A stretch of 64,000 bases of DNA. It comes from Talinum fruticosum (lineage: Eukaryota > Streptophyta > Magnoliopsida > Caryophyllales > Talinaceae). How positions within the stretch are numbered: the stretch's first letter is position 1; each line of letters starts with the position of its first letter. This document shows positions 22,233 to 64,000 of this stretch, piece by piece. The DNA lies in the NCBI GenBank assembly GCA_021018815.1, contig JAITYX010000003.1, forward strand, positions 13,659,501-13,723,500, given 5' to 3'. The position numbers were made by a program, and so were the translations under genes. The notes below the pieces were generated by a model. The model ran no database searches. It saw nothing but the letters and a program-made list of their open reading frames with translations, and was not told the DNA's origin.

Positions 22233-23806
22233 CGAAGGTTTGCTCAAGGAGAGTCTCGTGTCACCCTAGAGGGGGTGAATAGGGTGATGGAAGTTTTTCG
22301 TGAAAACGTTAGCTCTTTTACCAAAGAAGAGACAGAGATAGGTTCCGAGTCAATCAGCGAGGTCGAAAAGTATGGACTCGAAATGCTATCACGAATAAGT
22401 AAGCAAGTTAAACAGGAGCTATAAAGCTGCTCGAGTCTATAATGAACTCGGAAAGATAACACTTAGAGATTACGTGGAAACCCTCCTGGGCGAGAAAACC
22501 ACGGACCATGCTAATCCAAGCACGAAGTCAAATCCACTATTTTGAGTCCATAAAATACCGTGAACCGACCGAACCCGAGTTGCTCCCTTAGATAACTCTT
22601 TACAAGTTTTCCTAGACTCGAAATTCCCTTATCTCGATCTAGTACTTCCTAGCCGAGATAACCCTTACAGCTAGGGACAACTAAGCTAAGTTAACCCTTA
22701 CAGCTTAGTGAAGGGACCTTACAGAGAAAGTAAGAAAGTGTTTGTAATCGAGTACAAGACCTTACAACTCGGAAAGTAAAGATTTATAGAGTGGGAGTTG
22801 TAAGTAGAAGATTGAGAATAAATACAATGACTTTGCTCAAGTACGTGTATTAACAATAAGTTCGGCAATCTTCAAGTCTTGTGAGGTGGCTTCTATTTAT
22901 AAATGACCGAGCGAGTCGCCGTTATCTTCATCTCGCTGACCGAGAGTCCTTTGTGACCGTTGACAAGGTCTTTCCGAGTCAATCGAAAGTGTCCGTTGTA
23001 ATGTGAATGTTGGACAGCGGTTTAACTCTCTTGGAAGTCCCAAAACCACCTGGCGAGTGTCTTGAAAGATAAGGTGGAAACCACCGTTAAGCTTAGCATT
23101 CCAGTTTTCTAGATTTGGAAACAGACAACCCCGACACAATCTTCGAGACTCGGAGTAGAGAAGGTGAAAAGCCATGTCTGCTGGTGATTTGACGTTTTGA
23201 AGCCGATTACTTTTGTATTTCGAAAAACGTATCGTCGTTTGAATAACCTATAAAAGTAAATCAATTTTGGCTCTCAAAGTATAAAATACTTTGGTCCAAG
23301 ATTAGACACATATAATAAAATAATTAAGATACATAAACAACTAATTATACGAGTCGAAACGAAATGAAATTTTACGAGTCCAATATCCATGATACTCGGA
23401 ATTCCGTCCGACTTAGTCTAAGCGAAGAATCAAGTTAAGTAAAGAACATCGAGTGATATAACTTGATATAGACTAAGCATGAAACAGACTAGGCGTATTG
23501 ACTTCAACAAGATAGACCTTATAGAAAGGAGTCGGATGTGAGTGGAATACTAGTACTGTTCAGCATGCGATAAATCTAAGTGATGAGGGACTCGAAGTGA
23601 GTGAGATACGCATATCGGTTTTTGAGTCACGCAAGAGATACAAGAAGTAAAAGCTATATCACTTAGAGAAGATGCCATGTCACTCGGAAAAGTTTCTAAG
23701 ATACGAGAGAATGCCTTGGAATCAAAACTCTATAAGTACGAGATTGTTATACCTGATTCCTTTTGTACAACTCGGAAAAGTATTGAGCGAGTGTCTCGAG
23801 TCTTTA
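22233..23806 (-). repeat. 3' LTR of element C
   Basis: Bounded by the target duplication on the left and the polypurine tract on the right. Relative to family ends (TG...CA), the right edge reads ...GTCTTTA, giving TA in place of TG, and the left edge gives CG in place of CA. The CACCCTATTCACCCCCTCTAGGGTGA-type hairpin lies near the left end at about 22261-22287. It aligns with 31546-33122; many differences fall at CCGAGT/ACGAGT/CTCGG-like sites. Confidence 0.9.
22894..22901 (-). promoter_or_regulatory. TATA box in the 3' LTR of element C
   Basis: TATAAATA on the minus strand, in the position shared by family LTRs. In the 5' LTR of the same element the aligned site (about 32209-32217) reads TAAAAATA, so the copy that would drive the element has a changed box. 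Confidence 0.55.
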
Positions 23807-31531: not shown

Positions 31532-31543
31532 GGCTCGATACCA
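31532..31543 (-). other. Primer-binding site of element C
   Basis: Minus strand TGGTATCGAGCC, two bases from the LTR end. It fits the initiator-methionine tRNA site except for one missing base in the CAGAG part. Confidence 0.85.
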
Positions 31544-31545
31544 AT

Positions 31546-33122
31546 TGAAGGTTTTCTCGGGGAGAGTACTGTGTGACCCTAGGGGGTGAATAGGGTGATG
31601 GAAGTTTTTCGTGAAAACGTTAGCTCTTTTGCCAAAGAAGAGATAGAGACGAGGTTACGAGTCAATCGGCAGGGTCGGAAAAGTGTGGACTCGAAATGCT
31701 ATCACGAATAAGTAAGCAAGTTAAGCGGGAGCTATAAAGCTGTCCGAGTCTAGAATGAACTCGGAAAGATAACACTTAAAGATTACGTGGAAACCCTCCT
31801 AGGGCGAGAAAACCACGGACCGTGCTAATCCAAGCACGAAGTCAAATCCACTATTTTGAGTCCACAAAATATCGTGAACTTACTCGAACCCGAGTTGCTC
31901 CCTTAGACAACTCTTTACAAGTTTTCCTAGACTCGGAAATTCCCTTATCCGATCTAGTACTTCCTAGCTGAGATAACCCTTACAGCTAGGGACAACTAAG
32001 CTGAGTTAACCATTACAGACTTAGTCAAGGGACCTTACGAGAGAAAGTAAGAAAGTGTTTGTAATCGAGTACAAGACCTTACAACTCGAAAGTAAAGATT
32101 TACGAGTGGGAGTTGTAAGTAGAAGATTGAGAATAAATACAATGACTTTGCTCAAGTACATGTATTAACAATAAGTTCGACAATCTTCAAGTCTTGTGAG
32201 GTGGCTTTTATTTTTAGATGACCAGGCAGAGTCGCCGTTATCTTCATCTGCTGACCGAGAGTCCTTTGTGATCGTTGACAAGGTCTTTCCGAGTCACTTA
32301 GAAAGTGTCCGTTGTAATGTGAACGTTGGACAACGGTTTAACTCTCTTGGAAGTTCCAAAACCACCGGCGGTGTCTTGAAAGATAAGGTGGAAACCACCG
32401 TTAAGCTTAGCGTTCCAGTTTTCTAGATTTGGAAACAGACAACCCCGACAAAATCTTCCGGGACTAGAGCGAGAGAAGGTGAAAAGCCATATCCGTTGGT
32501 GATTTGACATTTTGAAGCCGGTTACTTTTGTATTTCGAAAAACGTGTCGTCGTTTGAATAACCTACAAAAGTAAATCAATTTTGGTTCTCAAAGTATAAA
32601 ATACTTTGGTCCAAGATTAGACACAGATAATAAAATAATTAAGAAACATAAACAACTAATTATATGAGTCGAAACGAAATGGAATTTTCTGAGTCCAATA
32701 TCCATGATACTCATAATTCAGTCCGACTTAGTCTAAGCGAAGAATCAAGCTAAGTAAAGAACATCGAGTGATATAACTTGATATAGACTAAGCATGAAAC
32801 AGACTGGGAGTATTGACTTCAACAAGATAGACCTTATAGAAAGGAGTCGGATGTGAGCGGAATACTAGTACTGTTCAAGCATGCGATAAATCTAAGTGAT
32901 GAGGGACTCGAAGTGAGTGAGATACGCATATCGGTTTTCCGAGTCACGCAAGAGATACAAGAAGTAAAAGCTATATCACTTAGAGAAGATGCCATATCAC
33001 TCGGAAAAGTTTCTAAGATACGAGAGAATGCCTTGGAATCAAAACTCTATAAGTACGAGATTGTTATACCCGATTCCTTTTATACAACTCGGAAAAGTAT
33101 TGAGCGAGTGTCCGAGTCTTCA
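31546..33122 (-). repeat. 5' LTR of element C
   Basis: Minus strand starts TGAAGACTCGGACAC at 33122 and ends CCTTCA at 31546, with intact TG...CA. It is flanked outside by ATCCC and inside by the primer site. Its TATA position reads TAAAAATA (about 32209-32217), so promoter strength may be reduced. Otherwise it closely matches 22233-23806. Confidence 0.92.
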
Positions 33123-33127
33123 ATCCC

Positions 33128-46178: not shown

Positions 46179-47068
46179 TGAAGACTCGGACAACGCTCAA
46201 AACTTTTTTGAGTTATGTAAAAGGAATCAGCTATAACAATTTCATACATATACAGTTTTGATTCCAAGGCATTCTCGGTATCGCGAAACTTCTTTGAGGA
46301 AAATAGTATCTTCTCCGAGTAATACGGTTTTCACTTAATGCATTCATTGCATTTCCGTAGCGACTCGTAAAACTGGTTCTTTGTTCCGAGTTCATCTTCA
46401 CTCGGATTTATCACGTTTTGAATATCCCGAATCCGACTTGTGGTTATACGTTCTATTTTGTTATAGTCGGTATCCTTAGTTCATTTCATGCTTAGTCTAT
46501 ACCAAGTTATCTCACTCTGATATTCCTTATGGAACTTGCTCTATTGCTTAGACTAAGTCGGATGGAATTCCGAGTATCATGGATATTGGACTCGTAAAAT
46601 TCCATTTCTTTTTGACTCGGATAATCGGTTGCTTAATTATCATAATTATTTTATTATCTCGTGTCTAACCTTGGACCAAAGTATTTTATACTTTGAGAAC
46701 CAAAGTTGATTTACTTTTGTAGGTTATTCATTCAAGGATACACCTTTTTCAAACCACAAAAGTAACGAGCTTGTAACGTCAAATCACCAGCAGACATGGC
46801 TTTTCACCTTCCCCGCTCCAGTCCCGGAAGATTGTGTCGAAGTCGCTCGGTTTCCATATCTGGAAAACTGGAACACCAAGCTTAACGGTGGTTTCCACCT
46901 CATTTTTCAAGACACTACCAATGGTTTTGGGACTTCCAAGAGAGTTAAACCGTTGTCCAACGTTCATATTTCAACGGATACTTTCTGAGTGACTCGAAAG
47001 CCTCTATCAAAGGTCACGAAGACTCTTGGTCAGCGAGATGAAGATAATGGCTACTCTGTCCGGTTATC

Positions 47069-47076
47069 TATAAATA
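47069..47076 (+). promoter_or_regulatory. TATA box in LTR A
   Basis: TATAAATA in TATCTATAAATAGAAGCCAC, at the same LTR position as in B (55346 and 62305). Transcription would begin about 30 bp downstream. Confidence 0.65.
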
Positions 47077-47674
47077 GAAGCCACTTCACAAGACTTGAAG
47101 ATTGCCGAATCTATTGTTAATACACATACTTGAGAAAAGTCATTGTATTTACTTTCAATCTTCAACTTACAACTCCCACTCTGTAATTCATTACTTTACG
47201 AGTTGTAAGGTCTTGTACTCGATTACAAACTCTTTCTTACATTCTTTGTAAGGTCCCTTGACTAAGCTGTAAGGGTTAACTCGACTTAGTTGTCCCTAGC
47301 TGTAAGGGTTATTTCAGCTAGGAAGTACTAGATCGGATAAGGGAATTTCGAGTCTAGGAAAACTTGTATAGAGTTGTCTAAGGGAGCAACTCGGGTTCGA
47401 TCGGTTCACGGTATTTTGTGGACTCAAAATAGTGGATTTGACTTCATGTCCGGATTGACACGGGCCGTGGTTTTCTACCCCGGGAGGGTTTCCACGTAAA
47501 ATCTAAGTGTTATCTTTCCGAGTTCATTCTAGACTCAGACAGCCTTACTCGCTCTTGTTCTTTTTGATTGATTGCTTTACGAGTCCAAGCTTTTCCGATC
47601 CAGTTTATAGATTCAAAATCCATCTTCCCTTCTACCTCTGCGCAAAAGAGTGTGATTTCGTAGAAAATTTCCTA

Positions 47675-47701
47675 TCACCCTATTCACCCCCTCTAGGGTG
47701 A
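47675..47701 (+). repeat. Inverted repeat near the LTR 3' end
   Basis: TCACCCTA (47675-47682) pairs with TAGGGTGA (47694-47701) around a C-rich loop. The same hairpin is in B (55949-55980, longer loop; 62912-62939) and in C, so it is a fixed family feature near the end of U5. Confidence 0.75.
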
Positions 47702-47731
47702 CTCGAGACTCTCCCCAAGCAAACCTTCAAT

Positions 47732-47743
47732 TGGTATCGAGCC
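47732..47743 (+). other. Primer-binding site of element A
   Basis: TGGTATCGAGCC, two bases after the LTR. It fits initiator-methionine tRNA except for one missing base. Confidence 0.85.
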
Positions 47744-47788
47744 TAGCCTTTAAGAAAGGATCTAACAATCCAAAGGTTTAAAGATCGG

Positions 47789-49600
47789 ATGGCTCGAACA
47801 CCGGAGAGTTCGACGAAGGAAGATCTTCCAACGAGGCCACCCAAATTCAAAGGTTCAAACTTTGGGCACTAGAAGAAGCTCATGGAATGTTTCCTCATGG
47901 ATCATGATGAAGAGGTATGGGAAATCATACAACAAGGAAACTACATTCCAACAAAGACAGATGAATTCAGAATTCTTCCCAAGACAAAGGCTGAGTTCAC
48001 ACCAGCGAGGCGAGAAGTTCGAAAGAATTTCAAAGCCATGAACATCCTTATGTGCGCCATAAGCTCGGAAGAATACAACCGAGTGTCTACCTGTGATTCA
48101 GCAAAAGAAGTGTGGGACACCCTTGTCAACACTTATGAAGGCACAAGTCAGGTCGGACAAGCAAAGATAAGTCAATATCTTCACAAATACGAGCTTTTCA
48201 AAATGGAGCCGAGAGGAGAACATCACCGAGATGTTCATTCGGTTCACCGAGATTACAAACAATCTCAAATCACTGGGAAAGAAGATCTCCCACGAAGAAA
48301 TGTGCCGGAAAATTCTCGAAGCCTACCCAAGAAAAGATGGGGTCCCAAAGTGACCGCCATAGAGGAAGCTCGGAACCTCTCTCTTAAAGCCGGACGAGCT
48401 CATTGGAAAGCTTCTAACAAATGAAATCCATCTAGAGGAGGAGGATGCTGAGGGTAGTACCAAAAGGAACATTACACTTAAAGCCTCGGAATCCAAGGAA
48501 GCAAATCCGAGCTCCTCCGACTCGAAGACGATCCCATGGCACTTATTGCAAGAGGCTTCAGGAGAATGATGAAGCACAAAAGATGGGACAAAAGGCCAAA
48601 AGAAGAGTTCTACAAGAAAGATAAGAGAGATAGAAAAGGTAAGTTTTCTTCTCCTTCAAAGTTATCTTTATCTAAGAATTCCGGATGTTTTGAATGTGGC
48701 AGCAAAGACCACATAGTCAAGGACTGTCCAAAACGGAAAAGGGACAGAAAGAAAAAAAGGCAATGATGGCAACATGGCGCGATGAGGACTCATCGGAAGA
48801 TGACAAGGACTCGAGATGACTCAAAGTGCTTGATGGCAATCTCGACTCGGAAGCTGAAAGAGAGTCGGACTTAGACTCGGACAATGAGGAAACCGATCCT
48901 CAAGAGGTAATAAACTACTTCCTTAAATTCTCCAAAGTTGATTTAGCTAAATACATTTTTACTTTGGAAGAAAAGTCCAATTCGATTCTTCTCAATTCAA
49001 AGAGCAACTTGAGTCAATCACTTGTGAGAGCACTTCTTTGAAAAACGAATTGGAAAAATTAAGACTCACACTCGAGAGAACTCAAGACTAGTGCTCAAGC
49101 TAATGAGACTGAGTCCGAGTTACTCAAGAAAGCAAATGAGCGACTAAAACGAAGCTCACCGAGTCCGAAGATCCGATTTTAAAGTTTACTCAAGGTCGAA
49201 GAACCTTGACATGCTCTTAGGATCACGAGTGTGTCTCTTTTCGAAAAGAAGGTCTTGGTTTCAACAAAGAGGAAGAATCTAATTCCTACTCGGAATTGTT
49301 CAAAAGGATTCCGAAGCTGTAAAGTTCGGGAAAGCTGAGCACGGTCCCATTCATAGAAATGAAAGGAGGACTAAGCCCAGAGCTATTTACAAAAAGAAAC
49401 CATTTTCTTCTGTTTCAAAAGGAAAAGTTTTCAAAAAGAAAGAGACACAAACTCGGTTCTCGAGAGGAAGACTCGAGAATCGGACAAAACCCAAAGTCAT
49501 TCAAATCCGGGTTCCGAAACACCTTCTTCCTCGAAAAGGACCACGAGTAAGGAATGTTACTTGGGTTCGTTAGAGGAAGTGAGAAGGGTTAGATTCTCTT
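47789..49600 (+). pseudogene. gag of copia element A
   Basis: Starts at ATG 47789 after the primer site. Readable in order: a segment with MECFLMDHDEEVWEII (47882), AKEVWDTLVNTYEGTSQV (about 48103-48156), the MALIARGF stretch (48536), and a complete zinc knuckle CFECGSKDHIVKDC at 48686-48727 (CX2CX4HX4C), followed by PKRKRDRKKK. A coiled, lysine- and glutamate-rich region and a basic tail lead to protease. This is the best-preserved nucleocapsid in the window. Frameshifts occur at 48210 (GAGCCGAGAGGAG), 48360-48420 and elsewhere. It binds the element RNA and forms the particle. Confidence 0.85.
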
Positions 49601-51110
49601 TGTTTTGCGGGTCACTCGAAGAGATCAAAAGGACACTGGTACCTTAACGGTGGATGCTCACGCCATATGTCGGGAGATGCGGGACTCTTTTACGAGTTGA
49701 GCAGGACATAAAGAAGGAAAAGTCACTTTTGGAGATGACAGCAAGGGCAAGATCGTGGGGATTGGCAAGATTGGAAAAGGAGGCAATCTAGTCGATCCAA
49801 GTATATCTTGTCAAGGGATTGAAATATAATCTGCTCAGCATTTCTCAACTATGTGACAAAGGTTAAGAGGTAAGATTCACTCGGACAAATTGCACTATTT
49901 CCGATGTCTCTACTAAAGAGATCAAGCTTTCGGGTAAGAGATCGGGTAATACATACATCATCCCTCTTTCGACCCAAGTCGAACTTATCTTATTTAAAGG
50001 CATCTCTCCATGATGACTCTTGGACTTGGCATCGTAGATTAGGCCATATCAGCATGCATACTATCAAGAAATTGGCATCTAATGGTTTAGTTAGGGGTTT
50101 ACCTAACTGTGTTTTTGAGAAAGACAAAGTATGTGAAGCATGCACCGAGAGGAAACAAGTCGGATCTTCTTTCAAATCTCGAAGACAGTTTCCACATCCA
50201 AAGTACTTGAATTACTGCATATGGACTTATGTGGTGAAATCCTCGTGAAGAGTCTCGGAGGTAAATCTTACATACTTGTCATTATTGATGATTTTTCACG
50301 ATTTACCGGGTGTGTTTTCTTAAGCACAAAAATGAAGCCTTCAAGGAGTTCAGCAAGCTCTGCTGAAAGATTCAAGTTGAGTCTCGGACTCGGATCCAAA
50401 GGATTAGAACCGACCATGGAAGGGAGTTCGACTACTCGGAGTTCTCGGAGTTTTGTGACAAAAATGGAATCTCTCACAACTTCTCGGCACCCAGAACTCC
50501 TCAACAGAATGGAGTAGTAGAGAGAAAGAACAGAACCCTTGAAGAAATAGCAAGGACGATGATGATTGAACACAACTTGCCTTATTATTTCTAGGCGGAG
50601 GTAGTGAACACAGCCAACTACACTCTAAATAGATGCCTCATCGGACCCATTCGAAGAAAACACCCTATGAGCTCTACAAAGGAAAGAAGCCATATTTCAG
50701 ACCTTTCGGATGTAAATGCTTCGTCCATAACAATGGTAAGGATCATCCGACCAAGTTTGATGCTCGGTCGAGACGAAGGTATTTTTCTAGGTTACTCCTC
50801 TCATAGCAAAGCTTATCGCATTTTCAATAATCGTACTAACAAAGTGGAAGAAAGCATCCACGTAGTATTTGATGAGCTCGAACAGGAGAAACCAAGTGAG
50901 TCTTCATACTCGAAGCTGAAGCTCGGAAAGGATGATGACGAAGTTGAGCCTACAAAGACTCGGACCCAACATGCTCGGAATAAAGTCACTCGAACGAGGA
51001 AACTCAAAATGAGACAGGTTCAAGAGCTCGCTCGAACGAACAAGTTAATGAAGAGGATCACTCGGAACAAGCTTCCGAAGATCAAGCGGTTCAGCCCACA
51101 AACCTGGTGA
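49601..51110 (+). pseudogene. protease-integrase of copia element A
   Basis: The protease neighbourhood near 49645-49680 reads YLNGGCSRHMSGD. The expected catalytic D-S/T-G is NGG, so the Asp is missing as read. GAG-pre-integrase and the zinc domain are good: WHRRLGHISMHTIKKL and VCEAC (50030-50143), with H-H-C-C complete. The core has HMDLCGEI (about 50220), TDHGREFD (50410) and NGVVERKNRT (about 50505), so all three catalytic acids (D, D, E) are readable, though in different frames. A TAG at 50592-50594 replaces the Trp of YYFWAE. Integrase C-terminal sequence ends near 51110. Confidence 0.84.
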
Positions 51111-51119
51111 ATCAAAGAA

Positions 51120-52796
51120 CCGGTAAAGCATTCAAATTTACTTCCAGTCATCCCCAAGAAAACATCATTTCGATATCAGCAGTGGGGTAAGAACTCGTTC
51201 TTCTTTACACAATCTATGTGCATTCACTGCATTCATTTCATTAACTCGAACCCAAAAATGCACTAGAGGCCCTTAATGAACCTGAATGGGTAGAGGCCAT
51301 GCAAGAAGAACTTAATCAATTCGAGAGAAACCAAGTCCGGACTCGACAAACCGACCTTCGACCACCCAATTATAGGAACCAAATGGGTTTTCAAAAACAA
51401 AGCTGGATGAGGGTGGAGTAGTAGTCGAAACAAGGCTAGACTTGTGGCTCAAGGTTACAATCAAGAAGAAGGAATTGATTGTGGGGAAACCTTTGCACCT
51501 GTAGCCAAAATTGAGGCCATTAGAATACTTGTTGGCATTTGCATCTAGCATGCATATTAAATTATATCAAATGGATGTTAAGTGTGCTTTTCTCAATGGT
51601 TTTATTTGTGCTTTTCTCAATGGTTTTATTGAAGAAGAAGTTTATGTCGAGCAGACCTCCTGGTTTTGAAAACTCAGAATTTCCAAATCATGTTTTCAAA
51701 CTTCAAAAGGCTCTCTATGGTCTTAAGCAAGCACCTCGAGCTTGGTATGAAAGACTGAGTAGCTTCCTGGTTCAAAATGATTTCAAAAGAGGTCGGATCG
51801 ACAAGACTCTCTTCATAAAGACCAAAGGGAAAGATTTTCTTATTGTTCAAATTTATGTTGATGATATTATTTTCGGTGCTACTAATGAATTTACGTGCAG
51901 AGAATTTTCCGAGTTGATGAGTCAAGAATTTCAAATGAGTATGATGGGAGAACTCAATTTCTTCCTTGGGCTGCAAATCAAACAAGACAAAGATGGAATC
52001 TTTGTTCATCAATCAAAATACACCAAGGAACTACTGAAGAAATACAAACTTCAAGATGCAAAGCACGCATCTACTCCCATGAGCGACGAGTATAAAGCTT
52101 TACTCGGACGAAAAGGTAAAGCAATAGATCGAAACTCTATCGAGGTATGATTGGATCTTTGCTATATCTTACTTCAAGCGAGCCGGATATAATGTTCGGT
52201 GTTTGTTTATGCGCAAGATTTCAAGCTAATCCAAAAGAATCACATCTCACTCGCGGTGAAGAGAATATTTAGATATCTTGCAAGTACTCAAAATTTAGGT
52301 CTATGGTACTCCGGAGACTCGAAGCCGACTCGACCGGGTACTCGAGACGCGGACTACGCAGGATACAAAGTTGATCGAAAGAGCACATCTGGAGCTTGCC
52401 AATTTCGGGTCAATCCCTAATATCTTGGCACTCAAAGAAGCGGAACTCGGTAGCTCTATCGATTGCGGAAGCTGAATATATTGCTCGCTGGAGCTTGTTG
52501 CGCTCAGATTCTTTGGATAAAACAACACTTGAAGGATCTTGGACTATTTCTCAACTCGGTTCCAATCAAGTGTGACAACCAAAGCACAATCGGTATCACT
52601 AAGAATCCTGTCCGAGCACTCAAAAACAAAGCATATTGAGGCCAGGTATCACTTCTTACGCGATCACTCGGAAAAGGGTGATATTGCACTTGAGTTCATT
52701 CCTACTAATCTTTAATTAGCTGATATCTTTACTAAGCCTCTTGGTGAAGATAAGTTTTGTTTTATTCGGAATGAGCTTGGTATGTTAAATGCTTAA
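51120..52796 (+). pseudogene. reverse transcriptase-RNase H of copia element A
   Basis: RT begins near 51280 (EPEWVEAMQEELNQFERNQV) and has AFLNGF, FKLQKALYGLKQAPRAWYER (about 51695-51755), catalytic YVDD at 51854-51865, and FFLGLQIKQDKDGIFVHQSK (about 51958). RNase H has DADYAG at 52346-52363, STSGACQF, and a damaged AEYI segment at 52470-52490, ending with a TAA at 52794-52796. The ORF at 51539-52150 is the longest unbroken RT piece. A 24-bp in-frame tandem duplication lies at 51583-51630. Several breaks are at CNG triplets. Confidence 0.88.
51583..51630 (+). repeat. 24-bp tandem duplication inside the RT of element A
   Basis: TGTGCTTTTCTCAATGG... occurs twice in perfect succession (51583-51606 and 51607-51630), adding eight codons in frame to the CAFLNGFI segment. 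Elements B and C have one copy. It lies in the RT fingers region and would probably disturb folding. Confidence 0.92.
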
Positions 52797-53184
52797 TGAT
52801 GTGCTACTCTGTTGCATAATTCTATGCTATGTGCTTTCTTTGTTAATAACAATTAGTTCGATTGATTCGGTGATACTTGGGCTAATAGTTATTTCGTGTT
52901 TCGAGTCACTCGAAACCTTTACGAGTCAAACTCGGACGTAGAAAAATTTGGACATCAAATTTTCTGAAACTATCTCTAGAATAGTGGAGAGTTTCAGATT
53001 ATATTTTCAAAATCTTTTTCTCTCTCTTTCTCGAGCGCTGCGATCGGATTTTAGCCGTGGAATTCTAACCGCTGGTATCTCAACCGTTGAAGAAGAACCG
53101 TCACACCGGTTTTTGGTGACTGATGGACAAGTCGAGTCGAACGGAGTTATACTTAAGGGATAGTTGACGGGCGCGCTTATTTTC

Positions 53185-53192
53185 TATAAATA
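53185..53192 (+). promoter_or_regulatory. Possible internal promoter (TATA box) upstream of the third ORF, element A
   Basis: TATAAATA in TTTTCTATAAATAACGACTA, about 240 bp upstream of the ORF start at 53433 and about 390 bp after the end of pol. The same box stands in C at 26103. The 53193-53432 leader is CT-rich. Confidence 0.45.
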
Positions 53193-53432
53193 ACGACTAT
53201 CCATCCTCATCTCGGTATTCTAAACTCCATCTCTCTCAAAAGAAACTTCTCGCGGAAGATTACTACCTGAACAGTCACTCTTGATCGTCTGCAAGCATCG
53301 AAGAAGCTCTCTCTCTCTCTCTTAAGTTTCGACTGATCTCGACTCTTTCTTCTACATTTTCATTTTCTTCTCTTCTACACCTCCTTCTCTCTTCTACTCG
53401 AAAAGTTTCATCTCTTCTCTCCTTCTCTCACA

Positions 53433-54430
53433 ATGCCTAAACGAGGAAACCATCCCGACTTCCAGGCTTCTCCCTCTTCCAAAAGCCTCGCACCAATAAG
53501 CAAGAAAGCTCAACCCCTTCCAAACCCGTTGTCACCCGAGCATCTTGCGTCTGGATGACAAATTCTTTCCAACAACCCAATTTTCTTGGTTGTCCAACAT
53601 CCAAACCACGGGATTATACTACTTCCTGTGTTTCAGCGAGTTCATCTATCTTGAACTCGTTTCGAGTTCTATGCTCACCTCACTCACTCCGAAAATGTTC
53701 TAACCTCTAGGGTTCGAACATTACTCGTTTGCATCAACACCTCTCTCCTCCACCGCCTGTTCAAAGTTTCTTCTCTTTTCTTGAACAGCAATCCTATCCT
53801 TTCACTCGAAGTCGCCGACGACTTCTTTGAAAAATACGCCAAAGAATTCCCCGGGTCCAGGAAAAACTTTTCGTGACTCGGTTGAAGTCGAAGCTCGCCT
53901 TCAGTGCTTTCTGCCGATGAGAACCTTCTTCTCACGAGCATTCCAGCAAGGAGAACCCCAACTCCAAGCACCTAAAAGCTCTCTTTGACATCCTTGAGGG
54001 ATACGAAGTAGACCTCTTCTCCTCCATCATTGAGCGGATGGCAGCTGTGCCGGCTCAACTCCAATCCAAGAAGAACACCTCTCTTCCTTTCGGTGCTCTT
54101 CGACCCTTGTCTTCAAACAATTTCAAGTTCCTCTTCCCTCGGACCCAAATGCGGTGTCCGAGGCTGCCATCGTGCTAGGCAAGAAGGAACTCCAGGGTAC
54201 GGATACCGGAAACCGACCCTAGTGTCCGGGTTCACAACTCGGAGCCGAGGCCTCCCTCTCCTCCTCGGACTCATAAATCAACCCCTCTTTCTCTTCCCTC
54301 TTCATCTCGCTGGAACCTCCACCTCGAGTGCCGCAAAATCTCTCTCTGCTCTCTTGTCCCCTGTTTTCATGGACAAGATCAACTCTGTCTCTTCGATTTC
54401 GGAGACATGCTCCAAGGTTTCAAATCTGTC
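53433..54430 (+). pseudogene. Third ORF (Sirevirus envelope-like position) of element A, first part
   Basis: Starts ATG 53433, MPKRGNHPDFQ, as in B and C. It continues with the middle block containing DDFFEKYAKEFPG (about 53815-53855) and breaks off at ...AAATCTGTC, where element B is inserted with CTGTC duplicated. The rest resumes at 62967. No membrane segment is visible. Function unknown: in Sireviruses this position is called envelope-like from early cases, but not all carry fusion features. Frameshifts occur in addition to the insertion. Confidence 0.7.
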
Positions 54431-56007
54431 CGAAGACTCGGACAATGCTCAATACTTTTCCGAGTTATGTAAAAGGAATCAGGTATGACAATCCCATGCA
54501 TATAGAGTTTTGATTCCAAGGCATTCTCGGTATCGCGAAACTTCTTTGAGTAAAATAGTATCTTCTCCGAGTAATACGGTTTTCACTTGTTGCATTTAGT
54601 GCGTTTCCATAAGCGACTCGAAAACCGGTTCTTATTTTCTAAGTTCATCTTCACTCGGATTAATCGCATTTTGAGTATACCATTATTCCACTTGTTTCTC
54701 ACTCGGAATCGACTTTTGGGTATACGTTCTATTCCGTTGTAGTCAGTATTCTTAGTTCATTTCATGCTTAGCCTATATCAAGTTAATCCTCTCTAATATC
54801 CTTTATCGAACTTGATTCTTCCCTTAGACTAAGTCGGATGGAATTACGAGTATCATGGATATTGGACTCGTAAAATTCCATTTTGTTTCGACTCGGATAA
54901 TCGGTTGCTTAATTATTATAATTATTTTATTATCTTTGTCTAATCTTGGGCCAAAGTATTCTATACTTTGAGAACCAAAATTAATTTACTTTTGTAGGTT
55001 ATTCATTCGAGGATACACCTTTTTCAAACCACAAAAGTAACCGGCTTCGTAACGTCAAATCACCAGTAGACATGGCTCTTCACCTTCCCTGCTCCAGTCC
55101 CGGAAGATTGTGTTAGAAGCCATGCGCTTCCATATCCGGAAAACTGGAACGCCAAGTTTAACGGTGGTTTCCACCTCATTTTTCGAGAGACTACCGATGG
55201 CTTTGGAACTTGCAAGAGAGTTAAACCGTTGTCCAACGTTCATATTTCAATGGATACTTTACGAGTGACTCGGAAAGCCTCTATCAACGGTCACGAAGAC
55301 CCTTGGTCAGCGAGATGAAGATAACGGCTACTCGTCTCGGTTATGTATAAATAGAAGCCACTTCACAAGACTTGAAGATTGCCGAATCTATTGTTAATAC
55401 ACATACTTGAGAAAAGTCATTCTATTTACTTTCAATCTTCAACTTACAACTCCCACTATGTAATTCATTACTTTACGAGTTGTAACGTCTTGTACTTAGT
55501 TACAAACTCTTCTTACATTCTTTGTAAGGTCCCTTGACTAAGTTGTAAAGGTTAACTCGGCTTAGTTGTCCCTAGCTGTAAGGGTTATCTCAGCTAGGAA
55601 GTACTAGATCGGATAAGGGAACTTCGAGTCTAGGAAAACTTGTATAGAGTTGTATAAGGGAGCAACTCGGGTTCGGTTAGTTCACGGTATTTTGTGGACT
55701 CAAAATAGTGGATTTGACTTCGTGTCCGGAATGACACGAGCCGTGGTTTTCTGCCCCAGGAGGGTTTCCACGTAAAACCTTAGTGTTATCTTTCCGAGTT
55801 CATTCTAGACTCGGACAGACTTTACTACTCTTGTTCCTTCGATTCATTGCTTTCGAGTCCAATCTTTTCGACCTCGTTGATAGACTCGGAATCTGTCTTT
55901 GTCTCTTTTCCGCGCAAAAGTGTGTGTGTTTTCAGTAAGAATTTTCTATCACCCTATTCACCCCCTCCCCTCTAGGGTGACTCGGACTCTCCCCGAGCAA
56001 ACCTTCA
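54431..56007 (+). repeat. 5' LTR of element B
   Basis: 1577 bp, begins CGAAGACTCGG (CG instead of TG) and ends CCTTCA. TATA box at 55346-55353. Near-identical to the 3' LTR at 61387. In the first 300 bp about ten differences are visible, and at least seven of them fall in C-N-G triplets. Confidence 0.92.
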
Positions 56008-56009
56008 AT

Positions 56010-56021
56010 TGGTATCGAGCC
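56010..56021 (+). other. Primer-binding site of element B
   Basis: TGGTATCGAGCC, identical to those of A and C, with the same missing base. Confidence 0.85.
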
Positions 56022-56066
56022 TAGCCTTTCGGAAAGGATCTAACAATCCAAAGGTTTAAAGATCGG

Positions 56067-56920
56067 ATGGCTCGAGAACACCGGAGAGTTCGACGAAGGA
56101 AGATCTTCCAACGAGGCCACCAAAATTCAAAGGTTCAAGCTTTGGGCACTGGAAGAAGCTTATGGAATGTTTCCTCATGGATCATGATGAAGAAGTATGG
56201 GAAATCATACAACAAGGAAACTACATTTCAACGAAGACAGATGAATTCGAATCCTTCCCAAGACAAAGGCCGAGTTCACACCAGCAAAAGCAGAGAAGTT
56301 CGGAAAGAATTTCAAAGCCATGAACATCCTTATGTGTGCCATAAGCTCGGAAGAATACAATCGAGTCTCTTCCTGTGACTCTGCTAAAGAGGTGTGGGAT
56401 ACTCTGGTCAACACATACGAAGGTACGAGTCGGGTGAGACAAGCAAAGATAAGTCAATATCTTCACAAATACGAGCTTTTCAAAATGGAGCCGAGAGGAG
56501 AACATCACTCGAGATGTTCATTCGGTTCACCGAGATTACAAACAATCTCAAATCACTGGGAAAGAAGATCTCCCATGAAGAAATGTGCCGGAAAATTCTC
56601 GAAGCCTACCCAAGAAAAGATGGGGTCCTAAGGTGACTCGCCATAGAAGAGGCTCGGAACCTTTCACTCTTGAAGCCAGACGAGCTCATCGGAAAGCTTC
56701 TAACGTATGAGATACATCCGGAAGAAGAAGATGTTGAGGGTACTACCAAAAGGAACATTGCGCTTAAAGCCTCGGAATCCAAAGAAGCAAGTCCGAGCTC
56801 TTCGACTCGAAGACGATCCCATGGCACTCATTGCAAGAGGCTTCAAGAGAATGATGAAGCATAAAAGATGGGACAAAAGACCAAAAGAGGAATTCTACAA
56901 GAAAGACAAGAGAGATAGAA
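56067..56920 (+). pseudogene. gag of element B, truncated
   Basis: Starts at ATG 56067 with the same first codons as A, with one extra base (GCTCGAGAAC) shifting the frame. It contains AKEVWDTLVNTYEGTSRV (56383-56436), TNNLKSLGKKISHEEMC and MALIARGFKRMMKHKRWDKR (56821), then reads KKDKRDR and jumps at about 56920 into the region ahead of RT. The zinc knuckle is deleted, so RNA binding would be impaired. Confidence 0.83.
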
Positions 56921-58736
56921 GTCACTCGGACCCAACATGCTCGGATTGAAGTCACTCGGAACGAGGAAACTCGGAATGAAACAGGTTCAAGAGCTAACTC
57001 GGAAAGAACAAGTGAATGAAGAGGATCACTCGGAACAAGCTTCGAAGATCAAGCAATTCAGCTCACAAACCTGGTGAATCAAAGAACTGGTAAAGCATTC
57101 AAATTCATTTCCAGTCATCCCCAAGAAAACATCATTTCGATATCAACGAGTGGGGTAAGAACTCGTTCCTCTTTACACAATCTATGTGCATTCACTGCAT
57201 TCATTTCATTAATCGAACCCAAAAATGCACTAGAGGCCCTTAATGAACCTGAATGGGTAGAGGCCATGCAAGAGGAACTTAATCAATTCGAGAGAAACCA
57301 AGTCCGGACTCGACCAACCGACCTTCGACCACCCAGTTATAGGAACCAAATGGGTTTTCAAAAACAAAGCTGGATGAGGGTGGAGTAGTAGTCGAAACAA
57401 GGCTAGAATTGTGGCTCAAGGTTACAATCAAGAAGAAGGAATTGATTGTGGGGAAACCTTCGCACCAGTAGCTGAATTGAGGCCATTAGAATACTCGTTG
57501 GCATTTGCATCCAGCATGCATATTAAATTATATCAAATGGATGTTAAGTGTGCCTTTCTCAATGGTTTTATTGAAGAGGAAGTTTATGTCGAGCGAGCCT
57601 CCTGGTTTTGAAAACTCAGAATTTCCAAATCATGTTTTCAAACTTCAAAAGGCTCTCTATGGTCTTAAGCAAGCACCTCGAGCTTAGTATGAAAGACCGA
57701 GTAGCTTCTTGGTTCAAAATGATTTCAAAAGAGGTCGGATCGACAAGACTCTATTCATAAAGACCAAAGAGAAAGATTTTCTTATTGGTCAAATCTATGT
57801 TGATGATATTATTTTCGGTGCTACTAATGAATTTCTATGCGAGAATTTTACTGAGTTGATGAGTCAAGAATTTCAAATGAGTATGATGGGAGAACTCAAT
57901 TTCTTCCTTGGATTACAAATCAAACAAGACAAAGATGGAATCGTTGTTCATCAATCAAAATACACCAAGGAACTGCTGAAGAAATATAAACTTCAAGATG
58001 CAAAGCACGCATCTACACCCATGAGCAACGAGCATAAAACTTGACTCGGACGAGAAAGGTAAAGCAATAGATCGAAACTCTATCGAGGTATGATTGGATC
58101 TTTGCTATATCTCACTTCAAGTAGACCGGATATAATGTTCGAGTGTTTGTTTATGCACAAGATTTCAAGCTAATCCAAAAGAATCACATCTCACTGCGGT
58201 GAAGAGAATATTTAGATATCTTGCAGGTACTCGGAATTTGGGTATATGGTATTCCGGAGACTCGGAATTGACTCGACTGGGTACTCGGACGCGGACTACG
58301 CAGGATACAAAGTTGACCGAAAGAGCACTTCTGGAGCTTGCCAATTTCGGGTCAATCCCTAATATCTTAGCACTTAAAGAACCAGAACTCGGTAACTCTA
58401 TCGACTACGGAAGCTGAATATATTGCCGCGAGAGCTTGTTGCGCTCGGATTCTTTGGATAAAACAACACTTGAAGGATCTTGGACTATTTCTCAACTCGG
58501 TTCCAATCAAGTGTAACAACCAAAGCGCAATTAGTATCACTAAGAATCCTGTCCAGCACTCAAAAACAAAGCATATTGAGGTCATGTATCACTTCTTACG
58601 CGATCACTCGGAAAAGGGTGATATTGCACTTGAGTTCATTCCTACTAATCTTCAATTAGCTGATATCTTTACTAAGCCTCTTGGTGAAGATCGGTTTTGT
58701 TTTATTCGGAATGAGCTTGGTATGTTAAATGCTTAA
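56921..58736 (+). pseudogene. integrase tail, reverse transcriptase and RNase H of element B
   Basis: After the deletion junction there is the integrase-RT linker (SHSDPTCSD), then RT: EPEWVEAMQEELNQFERNQV (57244), [20 protein letters not shown] (57411), LYQMDVKCAFLNGF, FKLQKALYGLKQAPRA before a TAG at 57685-57687 where A has Trp, YVDD at 57796-57807, and FFLGLQIKQDKDGIVVHQSK. RNase H is damaged at 58420-58440. The end is PLGEDRFCFIRNELGMLNA at 58736, an unbroken 88-codon stretch. Catalytic aspartates of RT are intact. Confidence 0.86.
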
Positions 58737-59373
58737 TTATGTGGTGCTCTCGTTGCATAATTACGTGCTGTGTGCTTTCTCTGTTAATAATCATTAGTTC
58801 GGTTGATTCGGTGATACTTGGGCTAATAGTTATTTTGTGTTTACGAGTCACTCGAAACCTTTACGAGTTAAACTCGGGCGTAGAAAAATTTGGACATCAA
58901 ATTTTCTGAAACTATCTCTAGAATAGTGGAGAGTTTCGGATTATATTTTCAAAATCTTTTTCTCTCTCTTTCTCGAGCGCTGCGATCAGATCTTAGCCAT
59001 GGATTTCAAACCACTGGTATCTCAACCGTTGAAGAAGAACCGTCACACCGGTCTTTGATGGCTGATGGACAAGCCGAGTCGAACGGAGTTACTTAACGGA
59101 TAGTGGACGGGCGCGCTTATTTTCTATGTATAGCGTCTATCCATCTTCATCTCGGTATTCTAAACTCCATCTCTTTCAAAAGAAACTTCTCGCGGAAGAT
59201 TACTGCGTGAACAGTCGCTCTTGATCGTCCGCAAGCATCGAAGAAGCTCTCTCTCTCTCTCGTAAGTTTCGATTGCTCTCATCTCTTTCTATCTGCATTT
59301 TCTTTTTCTTCTCTTCTACACCTCCTTCTCTCTTTCATTCGAAAAGTTTCATCTTTTCTCTCCTTCTCTCACA

Positions 59374-61045
59374 ATGCCTAAACGAGGAAACCATCCCGAC
59401 TTCCGGGTTTCCCCCTCCTCCAAAAAGCCTCGCACCAACAACCCGAAAGCTCAACCCCTTCCAAACCCGTTATCACCTAGCATCTTGCGCTGGATGACAA
59501 ATTCTTTCCAACAACCAAATTTTCTTGGTTGTCCAACATCCAAGCCACGGGAGTATACTACTTCCTGTGTTTCAGCGAGTTCATCTATCCCGAACTCGTT
59601 TCGAGTTCTATGCTCACCTCACCCACTCCGAAAATGTTCTAACCTCTAGGGTTCGAACATTACTCGTTCGCATCAACACCTCTCTCCTCCACCGCCTGTT
59701 CAAAGTCTCTTCTCTTTTCTTGAACAGTAATCCTATCCCTTTCACTGAAGTCGCCGACGACTTCTTTGAAAAATACGCTAAAGAATTCCCTGGATCAAGG
59801 AAAAACTTTTCTATGACTCGGTTGAAGTCGAAGCTCGGCTTTTGTGCTTTCTGCGATGAGAACCTTCTTCTCACAGCATTCCAGCAAGGAGAACCCCAAC
59901 TCCAAGCACCTCAAAGCTCTCTTCGACATCCTCGAGGGATACGAAGTAGACCTCTTCCCTCCATCATTGAGCGGATGGCAGTTGTGCCGGCTCAACTTTA
60001 ATCCAAGAAGAACACCTCCCTTTCTTTCGGTGCTCTTCGACCCTTGTCTTCAAACAATTTCAAGTTCCTCTTCCCTCGACCCAAACGCGGTGTCCGAGGC
60101 GGCCATTGTGGTCGGCAAGAAGGAACTCCGAGGTACGGATACCAGAAGCCGACCACGGTGTGCGGGTTCACAACTTCGAGCCGAGGCCTCCTTCTCCACC
60201 TCGGACTCGAAATCAACCCCTCTTCGTCTTCCCTCTACACCTGGTGGGGCCTCCACCTCGAGTCCCTCCAAATCTCTCTCTGCCCTCTTGTCCCCTGCTT
60301 TCATGGACAAGATCGGCTCCGTGTCTTCGAACTCGGAGACATGCTCGGGGCTTTCAAATCTGTCCTCCAAGGTCCGACCATCAACCAAAAGATCGAGTCG
60401 AGTCCCAAATCCGAGAGCGAGCAGTCTCTCGTTCTTGAGATAAGGGAGCTGGTCCGGGAGCGAAGGAGCTGGTCGAGCTCCTCAAAGAGCGACGGTCCAA
60501 GGCGGCTCGGGACCGGGATGACTCGGATGCGTCCGAAGCGTCTTCGAGTCCAGGTCGACCTCCTCGGACAACGAGGAAGCCGAGGAAGAAGAGGAAGAAG
60601 CTACGGATGCAGCAGAAGATGCTTGAGGAACCTGCGGGCTGAGGCAGGCCCTTCCGGGCAAAGGGAAGAAGAGGCCGTGGCAACTGCTGAGGGTCGGACT
60701 ACTCCCCAAGCTCAAATCGCGAGTACTCGGCTCGGACAGTGAGTCCGAGTGGGTCGAAGACCTCGCTCCTCCAGGCAGGTCGAGATAAAGCAGCCCCCTC
60801 CAGCCACCGAGGTCCCAAGGGAAGAACCCCTCGATCCACTCTCTCCGGGTCGGCCGCTCGGAGCCGAGCCCCGAGGACAATCCTGGTTCTCCCTTCGCCG
60901 TGCTCAAGCACATCGTCAAGATCATACCAGCGCCGGCGCACCTCCGCCTCCACTCGAAATCCCCTCCCTCGTAGGAGCCATGCACTCGGGTCACAATTCC
61001 TCGGTGTCTCCAAATTTATTTTTTTTTTTTTGTCCGGACAACTAA
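59374..61045 (+). pseudogene. Third ORF (Sirevirus envelope-like position) of element B
   Basis: The only copy of this ORF spanned without an insertion on the plus strand. It starts MPKRGNHPDFR at 59374 and ends about 61045, near 557 codons. Segments: basic N-terminus, a central part with NSNPIPFTEVADDFFEKYAK (59719-59775), a heptad-like E/R-rich stretch (LEIRELVRERRS, about 60425-60465), a serine/acidic patch, and a proline-rich C-terminus. The frame changes at least four times. No signal peptide or transmembrane segment is apparent. Start and end are supported by A and C. Confidence 0.7.
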
Positions 61046-61106
61046 CTTGTATTACTTGTTCTTTTCTCCCTTGTTCTTTTTTTGTGTTAATTTTTTTTTT
61101 TTGCTG

Positions 61107-61123
61107 AAAGGCAAAGGGGAGAA
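61107..61123 (+). other. Upstream polypurine tract of element B
   Basis: AAAGGCAAAGGGGAGAA, about 265 bp before the LTR-adjacent tract. The same arrangement is seen in A and C. Confidence 0.65.
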
Positions 61124-61373
61124 ATGTAATCGAAATCTTGTTGTCTTGTTTAGGGGAGTTTTTCCGCCCTTTTGACTTTTAATGGATTAATGCATGTCAT
61201 TATTTCGAGTTTATTATTTTCCGACTTATTGTTAAAAGCATACTTTATTTTGCTTTGCTACGATATATTAGATATTGCTCGAACTATTGAATATGTTTTA
61301 CTCATGCGCAAATCACTCGGAATCGATTTTTTTTCTAACAAAGTTTCTGTTTAAGTATGGAATGCCTTTCATC

Positions 61374-61386
61374 AAAAAGGGGAGAT
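61374..61386 (+). other. Polypurine tract next to the 3' LTR of element B
   Basis: AAAAAGGGGAGAT directly before the LTR. Confidence 0.85.
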
Positions 61387-62966
61387 TGAAGACTCGGACA
61401 ATGCTCAATACTTTTACGAGTTATGTAAAAGGAATCGAGTATGACAATCCCATGCATATAGAGTTTTGATTCCAAGGCATTCTCGATATCGCGAAACTTC
61501 TTTGAGTAAAATAGTATCTTCTCACGAGTAATACGGTTTTCACTTATTGCATTTAGTGCGTTTCCATAAGCGACTCGAAAAGCTGGTTCTTATTTTCCGA
61601 GTTCATCTTCACTCGGATTAATCGCATTTTGAGTATACCATTATTCCATCTGTTTCTTACTCGGAATCCGACTTTTGGGTATACGTTCTATTCCGTTGTA
61701 GTCGGTATTCTTAGTTCATTTCATGCTTAGTCTATATCAAGTTAATCCTCTCTAATATCCTTTATCGAACTTGATTCATCCCTTATACTAAGTCGGATGG
61801 AATTCCGAGTATCATGGATATTGGACTCGGAAAATTCCATTTCGTTTCGACTCAGATTATCGGTTGCTTAATTATTATAATTATTTTATTATCTTTGTCT
61901 AATCTTGGGCCAAAGTATTCTATACTTTGAGAACCAAAATTAATTTGCTTTTGTAGGTTATTCATTCGAGGATACACCTTTTTCAAACCACAAAAGTAAC
62001 CGGCTTCGAACGTCAAATCACCAGCGAGACATGGCTCTTCACCTTCCCTGCTTCGGTCCCGGAAGATTGTGTCGAAGATGTCCGCTTCCATATCCGGAAA
62101 ACTGGAACGCTAAGCTTAACGGTGGTTTCCACCTCATTTTTCGAGACACTACCGATGGCTTTGGAACTTACAAGAGAGTTAAACCGTTGTCCAACGTTCA
62201 TATTTCAACGGATACTTTCCGAGTGACTCGGAAAGCCTCTATCAACGGTCACAAAAGACCCTTGGTCAGCGAGATGAAGATAACGGCTACTCTGTCCGGT
62301 TATCTATAAATAGAAGCCACTTCACAAGAATTGAAGATTGCTGAATCTATTGTTAATACACATACTTGAGAAAAGTCATTATATTTACTTTCAATCTTCA
62401 ACTTACAACTCCCACTCTGTAATTCATTACTTTACGAGTTGTAAGGTCTTGTACTTAGTTACAAACTCTTCTTACATTCTTTGTAAGGTCCCTTGACTAA
62501 GTTGTAAAGGTTAACTCGAGCTTAGTTGTCCCTAGCTATAAGGGTTATCTCAGCTAGGAAGTACTAGATCGAGATAAGGGAACTTCGAGTCTAGGAAAAC
62601 TTGTATAGAGTTGTCTAAGGGAGCAACTTGGGTTCGGTCAGTTCACGGTATTTTGTGGACTCAAAATAGTGGATTTGACTTCGTGTCCGGATTGACACGG
62701 GCCGTGGTTTTCTGCCCCAGGAGGGTTTCCACGTAAAACCTAAGTGTTATCTTTCCGAGTTCATTCTAGACTCGGACATGCCTTCTATCGCTCCTGTTCC
62801 TTCGATTCATTGCTTTCGAGTCCAATCTTTTCGACCCCGTTGATAGACTCGGAATCTCTCTTTGTCTCTTTTCCGCATAAAAGTGTGTGTGTTTTCACTA
62901 AGAATTTTCTATCACCCTATTCAGCCCCCTCTAGGGTGACTCGGACTCTCCCAGAGCAAACCTTCA
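61387..62966 (+). repeat. 3' LTR of element B
   Basis: 1580 bp, TGAAGACTCGG...CCTTCA, TATA box at 62305-62312, hairpin at 62912-62939. It is followed by CCTGTC, where the third ORF of A resumes. Confidence 0.93.
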
Positions 62967-63645
62967 CCTGTCCTCCAAGGTCCGACTATCAACCAAAAGA
63001 CTGGTCGAGTCCCAAATCCGAGAGCAGCGAGTCTCTAGTCCTTGAGATGAGGGAGCTGGTCCAGGAGCGAAGGAGCTGGTCGAGCTCCTTAGAGAGAGAC
63101 GGTCCAAGGCGGCTCGGGACCGGGATGACTCGGATGCGTCCGAAGCGTCTTCGAGCCCGAGTCGACCTCCTCGGACAGCGGGGATGAGGAAGAAGAGGAA
63201 AAAGCTGCAGATGCGACGAGAAGATGCTTGAGGAACTTGCGGGCGAGGCAGGCCCTTCCGGGTAAAGGGAAGAAGAGGTCATGGCAACTGCTGAGGGTCG
63301 AGCTGCTCCCAAGCTCAAATCGCGAGTACTCGGATCGGACGGCAGTCCGAGTGGGTCGAAGACCTTGCTCCTCCAGCGGGTCGGACAAAGCAGCCCCTCC
63401 AGCCATTGAGGTCCCAAGGGAAGAACCTCGATCCACTCTCTCCGGGTCGGCCGCTCGGAGCCGAGCCCCGAGGACAATCCCAGTTCTCCCTTCGCCGCGC
63501 TCAAGCACATCGTCAAGATCATATCGGCGCCGGCGCACCTCCGCCTCCACTCGAAATCCCCCTCCCTCGTAGGAGCCATGCACCGAGTCACAATTCCTCG
63601 GTGTCTCCGAATTTTCCTCTGTCTCGATTTTTTTGTTTTGTCTAG
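62967..63645 (+). pseudogene. Third ORF of element A, second part
   Basis: Continues the ORF broken at 54430. The sequence from CTGTCCTCCAAGGTCCG onward matches element B from 60360 to its ORF end. It carries the E/R-rich stretch (LEMRELVQERRS, about 63040) and the proline-rich C-terminus ending near 63645. Frameshifts are present. Confidence 0.75.
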
Positions 63646-63710
63646 ACAACTAACTTGTTTTACTTGTTCTTTTCTCCCTTCTTTTTTTTGTTGTTAATTT
63701 TTTTTTTGCT

Positions 63711-63727
63711 GAAAGGCAAGGGGGAGA
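63711..63727 (+). other. Upstream polypurine tract of element A
   Basis: GAAAGGCAAGGGGGAGA, the counterpart of 61107-61123 in B and 24102-24120 in C. Confidence 0.65.
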
Positions 63728-63973
63728 AATGTAGTCAGAAAACTTGTTGTCTTGTTTAGGGGAGTCTTTCCGCCCTTTTTGAATTTTAATGGATTAATGC
63801 ATTTACGAGTTCATTTATTTTTCGAGTTAATGTTAAAGCATACTTTATTTGTTTTTGCTCGATATATTATATATTGCTCCGAACTATTAAGTATATCTTA
63901 CTCATGCGCAAACCACTCAGAATCAATTTCTTTTCTAACAAAGTTTACGTTTAAGTATGGAATGCCTTTCATC

Positions 63974-63987
63974 AAAAAGGAGGAGAT
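63974..63987 (+). other. Polypurine tract next to the 3' LTR of element A
   Basis: AAAAAGGAGGAGAT, directly before the LTR start. Confidence 0.8.
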
Positions 63988-64000
63988 TGAAGACTCAAAC
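63988..64000 (+). repeat. Start of the 3' LTR of element A
   Basis: TGAAGACTCAAAC, the first 13 bases of the LTR; the rest is outside the window. Confidence 0.85.

What the first reader, a model, noticed from the sequence alone, without database searches (positions are those of the whole stretch)
46179..62966. Copies differ mainly at C-N-G triplets: possible methylation-linked sequence errors
Aligned LTR sites read CTGAGT (46985, A), ACGAGT (55261, B 5') and CCGAGT (62219, B 3'). In the first 300 bp of the two B LTRs at least seven of about ten differences are at C-N-G, for example CAGG versus CGAG, CCG versus ACG, CTCCG versus CTCACG, and ACCGG versus AGCTGG. Coding examples: the RNase H segment reads TTGCTCGCTG in A (52481) and TTGCCGCGAG in B (58422). 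CHG is the plant-specific methylation context and is dense in transposons. One-base insertions at CNG are not explained by deamination, but would fit consensus errors in long reads from methylated DNA. It would also explain the high count of CCGAGT/ACTCGG/ACGAGT in the window.
Basis: partly seen in the sequence, partly recalled or inferred. Interest (0 to 1): 0.75.

Follow-up and report, generated by a model that had tools for sequence, protein, structure and literature searches.

The report
Methylation-site sequencing errors in plant DNA
Many of the differences between these transposon copies look like sequencing mistakes at CAG/CTG-type sites, where plants methylate their DNA: even the plant's nearly unchanging 5S ribosomal RNA genes are scrambled at such sites and almost nowhere else, so ages and broken genes read from this assembly cannot be taken at face value.

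Summary
In the young LTR pair of element B, 33 of 63 differences overlap C-N-G (14.7 expected); in element C, 42 of 83 (18.6). Between the older relatives A and B the LTR excess is weak (38 of 129 against 30.9). The decisive test lies outside the window. The same 620-Mb genome holds a 5S rDNA array. Of 85 full 5S copies, 80 are letter-identical outside five CHG sites, yet 79 are altered at one or more of them: CAG reads CGG, CGAG, CGA or CTGA; CTG reads TG, CG, TCG, ATG or ACG. No altered state is a plain C>T or G>A. An eIF-4B exon elsewhere keeps its CAG/CTG (33, against 4 CCG/CGG), whereas in the window CAG:CGG is 737:1277. Best explanation: consensus errors at methylated CHG, most likely nanopore, from a basecaller that handles methylated CpG but not CHG. 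Reads, platform and methylation data were not available, and uneven polishing is not excluded. LTR divergence is inflated roughly 1.3-1.7-fold. The class of artefact is known; nine literature searches listed no paper recognisably describing this CHG pattern in plant assemblies.

The parts
46179..47729 (+). 5' LTR of element A (Ty1/copia)
   Evidence: self-alignment; starts TGAAGA and ends CTTCA
47730..54430 (+). internal part of element A up to the insertion of B; gag, GAG-pre-integrase, SH3 and RVT_2 matches in separate open pieces; continues after B at 62967
   Evidence: PF14223 E 3.4e-15, PF13976 E 1.7e-17, PF25597 E 1.3e-12, PF07727 E 2.4e-38; rve PF00665 below its cut-off
54431..62966 (+). 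element B, nested in A; a 5-base target duplication CTGTC is seen by comparison with an uninterrupted paralog of the site inside B, and each junction departs by one base from the expected pattern, both at CTG
   Evidence: PF07727 E 1.5e-19 at 57688-58041
54432..56007 (+). B 5' LTR
   Evidence: 33 of 63 differences from the 3' LTR overlap CNG
61388..62966 (+). B 3' LTR
62967..64000 (+). continuation of A after B (runs off the window)
   Evidence: matches B 60360-61395; empty-site comparison
31547..33123 (-). 5' LTR of element C
   Evidence: 42 of 83 differences from its 3' LTR overlap CNG
22234..23804 (-). 3' LTR of element C
15001..17000 (.). island with intact CAG/CTG inside the window (contrast region)
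   Evidence: CAG:CGG 46:15 against 691:1262 in the rest of the window; 24 of the 46 lie in a CAG-rich stretch at 16751-17000

Best explanation
The C-N-G differences are to a large part consensus sequencing errors. Plants methylate cytosine in CHG (CAG, CTG, CCG) in transposons and rDNA (established knowledge). A long-read basecaller, most likely nanopore, that copes with methylated CpG but was not trained on methylated CHG misreads the signal there: CAG comes out as CGG, CGAG or CGA; CTG as CG, TCG, ACG, ATG or TG. The consensus keeps the error because the reads agree on a wrong reading. Shown here: errors in 5S genes with a known answer, their confinement to CHG, their non-deamination kind, and the absence of the signature from gene exons of the same assembly. 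Inferred: the methylation state, the platform, the basecaller's training.
For: 5S: 80 of 85 copies identical outside five CHG sites, 79 of 85 altered at one or more of them; 205 of 212 differing letters within one base of CHG (29 of 119 columns); 176 of 421 readable site-copies altered, none a plain C>T or G>A (counted). The copies with all five sites intact score best of the 47 scored against Rfam 5S (113.9 bits). Nine LTRs: differences per column and copy 0.189 at CAG/CTG, 0.091 at CCG/CGG, 0.065 at CG-only, 0.0185 elsewhere; CG-only mostly C>T/G>A (24 of 36), CAG/CTG mixed (29 C>T/G>A, 37 A>G/T>C, 18 transversions, 28 indels of 112). Compartments: eIF-4B exon 33 CAG+CTG against 4 CCG+CGG, WG-repeat exon 84 against 8; CAG/CTG and CG o/e correlate at -0.62 over 70 bins; TCAGA:TCGGA 86:21 in four gene-type stretches, 37:317 in the window, 23:143 in three transposon stretches. 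[quoted passage not shown] modification-mediated nanopore errors at GCAGC and GCTGG in Listeria (PMC10687267, passages).
Against: No reads, platform or methylation data. The excess is weak in A-against-B LTR comparisons and in one internal piece. CCG sites in 5S are mostly stable (79 of 85). The 5S spacer also carries real variation: of 5 unit columns with minor frequency over 0.25 only 1 is CHG. Two of the four gene-type stretches (L040, L041) were chosen by composition or open frames, not by a significant family match, so that pooled contrast is partly circular. An old, genome-unique segment could not separate error from decay.
Confidence: 0.88

Rival explanations
1. The errors at CAG/CTG arise everywhere regardless of methylation, and short-read polishing removed them only in unique gene DNA, leaving them in repeats.
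For: 5S arrays and young LTRs are repeats where short reads map poorly; no unmethylated multi-copy control was obtained (actin-family search unanswered).
Against: A segment whose best other match in the genome is 82-87% (40301-41100), so mappable, lies in DNA as poor in CAG/CTG (o/e 0.36 and 0.22 per kb) as the young copies, though old age alone may explain that. CpG is spared in 5S, which points to modification rather than letters. No known unmethylated-DNA error of nanopore is confined to CHG (recalled).
Confidence: 0.09
2. Real mutation: methylated cytosines at CG and CHG deaminate to T, so old copies differ at these sites.
For: CG-only columns of nine LTRs show 24 of 36 C>T/G>A, and 29 of 112 differences at CAG/CTG are of that kind, so part of the LTR divergence is of this kind; a methylated mitochondrial insert of Arabidopsis shows 175 of 235 C>T changes at CpG or CHG (PMC9071559, passages).
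Against: 83 of 112 changes at CAG/CTG in LTRs are something else; no altered 5S site is a plain deamination product; a functional array would not vary only there.
Confidence: 0.02
3. Enzymatic A-to-I-like editing of the retroelement RNA (CAG to CGG).
For: A>G and T>C are frequent at CAG/CTG among LTRs (37 of 112).
Against: Both strands are hit, with insertions and transversions, and 5S genes, which are not retroelements, show the same products.
Confidence: 0.01

Closest known systems
Modification-mediated errors in nanopore assemblies of bacteria (Chiou et al. 2023, PMC10687267; abstract and passages seen)
   Same: Consensus errors at the motif of a DNA modification that the basecaller was not trained on; motifs there were GCAGC and GCTGG, which contain CAG and CTG.
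   Different: There proved with whole-genome amplification and related genomes in Listeria; here a plant, CHG context, inferred from letters alone with 5S rDNA as yardstick.
Poor basecalling of native plant DNA (review PMC7501810, section 10 read)
   Different: The section gives no CHG-specific error pattern or read-free diagnostic.
Methylation-driven C>T decay of silenced DNA (Arabidopsis mitochondrial insert, PMC9071559; passages)
   Same: Excess of changes at CpG and CHG in methylated nuclear DNA.
   Different: That spectrum is dominated by C>T; the CAG/CTG spectrum here is mostly A>G/T>C, indels and transversions.
Ty1/copia LTR retrotransposons
   Same: Elements A and B: copia-type gag and RVT_2 matches, long LTRs, 5-base target duplication for B.
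   Different: Nothing unusual found in the elements themselves.

Membership tests
Modification-mediated long-read consensus errors | Errors sit at the recognition context of a DNA modification | tested here: met
   205 of 212 differing 5S letters within one base of CHG; LTR excess at CNG. That the context is methylated here is inferred.
Modification-mediated long-read consensus errors | Wrong letters are of several kinds, indels included, in sequence whose true letters are known | tested here: met
   5S states at CAG15, CAG39, CAG49 and CTG95
Modification-mediated long-read consensus errors | Unmodified DNA with the same words is read correctly | tested here: inconclusive
   Gene exons keep CAG/CTG, but their methylation and any polishing are unknown
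Modification-mediated long-read consensus errors | Errors vanish in amplified DNA or accurate reads | not testable with these tools
   No reads held
Modification-mediated long-read consensus errors | Assembly made from nanopore reads | not testable with these tools
   Genome unnamed, platform unknown
Methylation-driven deamination | Changes are C>T or G>A | tested here: not met
   At CAG/CTG 29 of 112 in LTRs, none as a plain change in 5S; met at CG-only columns (24 of 36)
Ty1/copia LTR retrotransposon (elements A and B) | Copia-type gag and RVT_2 domains | tested here: met
   Both in A; RVT_2 in B
Ty1/copia LTR retrotransposon (elements A and B) | LTRs bounded by TG...CA and a short target duplication | tested here: met
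   TG...CA at the A 5' LTR; 5-base duplication for B, its 5' TG blurred by one base at a CTG

The most novel reading that the evidence does not exclude
The finished letters are an accidental methylation map. Because the misreading happens only where CHG is methylated, the local ratio of CAG to its error products (CGG, CGAG, CGA) reads out CHG methylation at kilobase scale, without signal or bisulfite data: it separates gene stretches from transposons, picks out an island at 15001-17000 in this window, and gives site-specific degrees in 5S (CAG49 altered in 75 of 85 copies, CAG39 in 12 of 85).
Probability: 0.35. Interest if true: 0.65.

Novelty: new member of a known kind. Interest (0 to 1): 0.5.

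Why it matters
If such assemblies are public, transposon ages, frame integrity, rDNA variants and CpG content read from them are biased. Substitution divergence of the B LTR pair falls from 4.46% to 2.63% when CNG columns are left out, and of the C pair from 5.69% to 3.37%; leaving out G-N-C columns as a control moves them to 3.48% and 4.91%, so the inflation is between about 1.3-fold (against the control) and 1.7-fold. 5S rRNA genes give a quick test that needs no reads: variants confined to CAG/CTG sites mark an affected assembly.

Tried and rejected
Deamination as main cause, editing and chance were rejected on the 5S and LTR spectra. Organelle control: the bacterial SSU model found two nuclear 18S-like copies (L069, L071) and short bacterial-type fragments (L070, L072, L073) on large contigs, no organelle contig. 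The 18S-like copies are diverged (145 difference events between the two; 76 flagged near CNG by a loose rule without a null) and serve only as illustration: the conserved 5.8S word UUGCAGAA reads TTGCGGAA in L069 and TTGTAGAA in L071, one error-like and one deamination-like. An old segment without close relatives in the genome could not separate error from decay: its CAG/CTG changed in 80% but control triplets in 37-67%. Starts of 20 small contigs held no Rfam match. No tRNA in the window. The organism was not identified. One search aligned four loci in the wrong orientation and was discarded; one search repeats it correctly. Of 101 5S hits 16 were left out of the 85: 14 are cut by the ends of the fetched pieces and 2 differ at the ends of the gene; all 16 were inspected.
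Full report
What was claimed. The quoted letters are in place, one coordinate being off by one base.

What the elements are. The window carries related long-terminal-repeat elements: A from 46179, interrupted by B (to 62966) and resuming at 62967, and C on the minus strand (22234-33123). A and B have Ty1/copia-type domains (C was not scanned). B's insertion into A is shown by an uninterrupted paralog of the site inside B; it reveals a 5-base duplication whose two junctions each depart by one base from the expected pattern, both at a CTG. The LTR family has at least 40 places at 93% identity or more in the genome (40 of 4995 candidates were scored).

Is the excess at CNG real? Against events of the same kind placed at random, CNG overlap is 33 of 63 (expected 14.7) for the B LTR pair and 42 of 83 (18.6) for the C pair; the mirror control G-N-C shows no excess. 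Between A and B, older relatives, the excess is weak in LTRs (38 of 129 against 30.9; 38 of 130 against 29.0) and in one internal piece (30 of 80 against 22.3), but clear in the larger internal piece (76 of 201 against 48.0) and in its indels (16 of 27 against 6.0). Overlap with CG is in excess too in the C pair, the two A/B LTR comparisons and the larger internal piece (z 3.9-4.5), not in the B pair (z 1.1). A fixed load of errors diluted by real old mutation would look like this.

What kind of change? In nine related LTRs (B5, B3, L002-L008, the best-scoring matches to B5), differences per column and copy are 0.189 at CAG/CTG (66 columns), 0.091 at CCG/CGG (128), 0.065 at CG-only (62) and 0.0185 elsewhere (1313). 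CG-only sites show mostly C>T/G>A (24 of 36), as methylation-driven mutation should. CAG/CTG sites do not: 29 C>T/G>A, 37 A>G/T>C, 18 transversions, 28 indels, of 112; CCG/CGG sites are intermediate (56 of 105 C>T/G>A). CAG/CTG occurrences are changed in 55%, 58% and 43% in three pairs, CCG/CGG in 30%, 49% and 35%, and six other triplets in 8-36%. For contrast, a methylated mitochondrial insert in Arabidopsis is dominated by C>T, 175 of 235 at CpG or CHG (PMC9071559, passages).

The yardstick. The window's genome (G000, 620,015,648 bases in 264 contigs) has a 5S rDNA array on contig C6 (47 of 19311 candidates scored). Thirty overlapping loci give 47,717 bases with 101 5S hits, of which 85 full-length copies were kept; the other 16 were inspected. 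Outside five CHG sites 80 of 85 copies are letter-identical, and 79 of 85 are altered at one or more of the five. Of 212 differing letters 205 lie within one base of a CHG triplet, 29 of 119 columns. States: CAG15 reads CGG in 50 of 85 and is kept in 31; CAG49 reads CGAG in 54, CGA in 8, CTGA in 5, CGG in 4, and is kept in 10; CAG39 is kept in 73; CCGG28 in 79; CTG95 in 52, the rest being TG, TCG, CG, ATG, ACG, TGA or ACAG. Leaving out 4 site-copies whose flank differs, 176 of 421 are altered; none is a plain C>T or G>A. The six copies with all five sites intact score best of those scored against Rfam 5S (113.9 bits). A near-invariant transcribed gene should not really vary like this. Over 84 whole units with spacer, mean minor frequency is 0.029 in CHG columns, 0.008 in CG-only and 0.010 elsewhere; but of the 5 columns above 0.25 only 1 is CHG, so real variants exist in the spacer.

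Compartments. Ten arbitrarily chosen 10-kb stretches range from CAG/CTG o/e 0.43 to 1.31. L046 (an eIF-4B exon, PF06273 E 1.5e-54) has 1.06 and CG o/e 0.37; L044 (a 505-residue WG-repeat open frame) has 1.31 and 0.34. L045 has copia domains and 0.51 with CG 0.90; L047 (zinc knuckle just under cut-off) 0.44 with 0.86; L039, L043 and L048 are unclassified (0.65, 0.71, 0.43). Pooled with L040 and L041, which were added on composition or open frames without a significant family match, the gene-type stretches have median CAG/CTG o/e 1.14 and CG o/e 0.40 in 20 bins; 17 bins homologous to the window have 0.49 and 0.80; 47 bins without homology 0.75 and 0.49. Over all 70 bins the two ratios correlate at -0.62. 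CAG:CGG is 990:258 in the four gene-type stretches, 737:1277 in the window, 343:522 in L042/L045/L047; TCAGA:TCGGA is 86:21, 37:317 and 23:143. The eIF-4B exon has 33 CAG+CTG and 4 CCG+CGG, the WG-repeat exon 84 and 8.

Reading. Words that are kept in gene exons are garbled in 5S and in transposons, CpG is spared in 5S, and the wrong letters are of many kinds. That is how a basecaller behaves that knows methylated CpG but not methylated CHG. The mechanism in general is in print: PMC7501810 (section 10 read; passages) and PMC10687267 (passages). Nine library searches (three of them empty) listed no title that I recognised as describing this CHG pattern in plant assemblies; passages of PMC10027222, PMC11971355 and PMC11022628 did not describe it. 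Most listed papers were not opened, one list was cut at 25 of 50, and the library lacks preprints and most subscription journals.

Limits. Platform, polishing and methylation are inferred. The polishing rival is not excluded, because no unmethylated multi-copy control was obtained. The word CCGAGT is over-represented partly because the elements are rich in the underlying word.

Verdict. It is an artefact of a known class, not new biology, but a large one with a clean, read-free diagnostic, and it may double as a crude methylation map.

Noticed in passing
15001-17000: Island of normal CAG/CTG content in a window otherwise depleted of it (CAG:CGG 46:15 against 691:1262), partly a CAG-rich stretch at 16751-17000; possibly unmethylated or genic.
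   Followed up: partly
L044:7743-9257 (minus strand): Open frame of 505 residues rich in WG repeats, no Pfam match; it recalls (from memory, no call) the tail of the Pol V subunit of RNA-directed DNA methylation.
   Followed up: no
L069 and L071: Isolated, diverged 18S-5.8S copies on contigs C24 and C5 showing both deamination-like and error-like changes at conserved CAG/CTG.
   Followed up: partly
54431-62966: Relative to A, B lacks about 2.3 kb of the internal region (B 56920/56924 joins the equivalents of A 48635 and 50958).
   Followed up: no
whole window: Transposon DNA here has twice the CG o/e of the gene-type stretches (0.80 against 0.40), the reverse of what methylated repeats would be expected to show; error products that contain CG would explain it.
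   Followed up: partly
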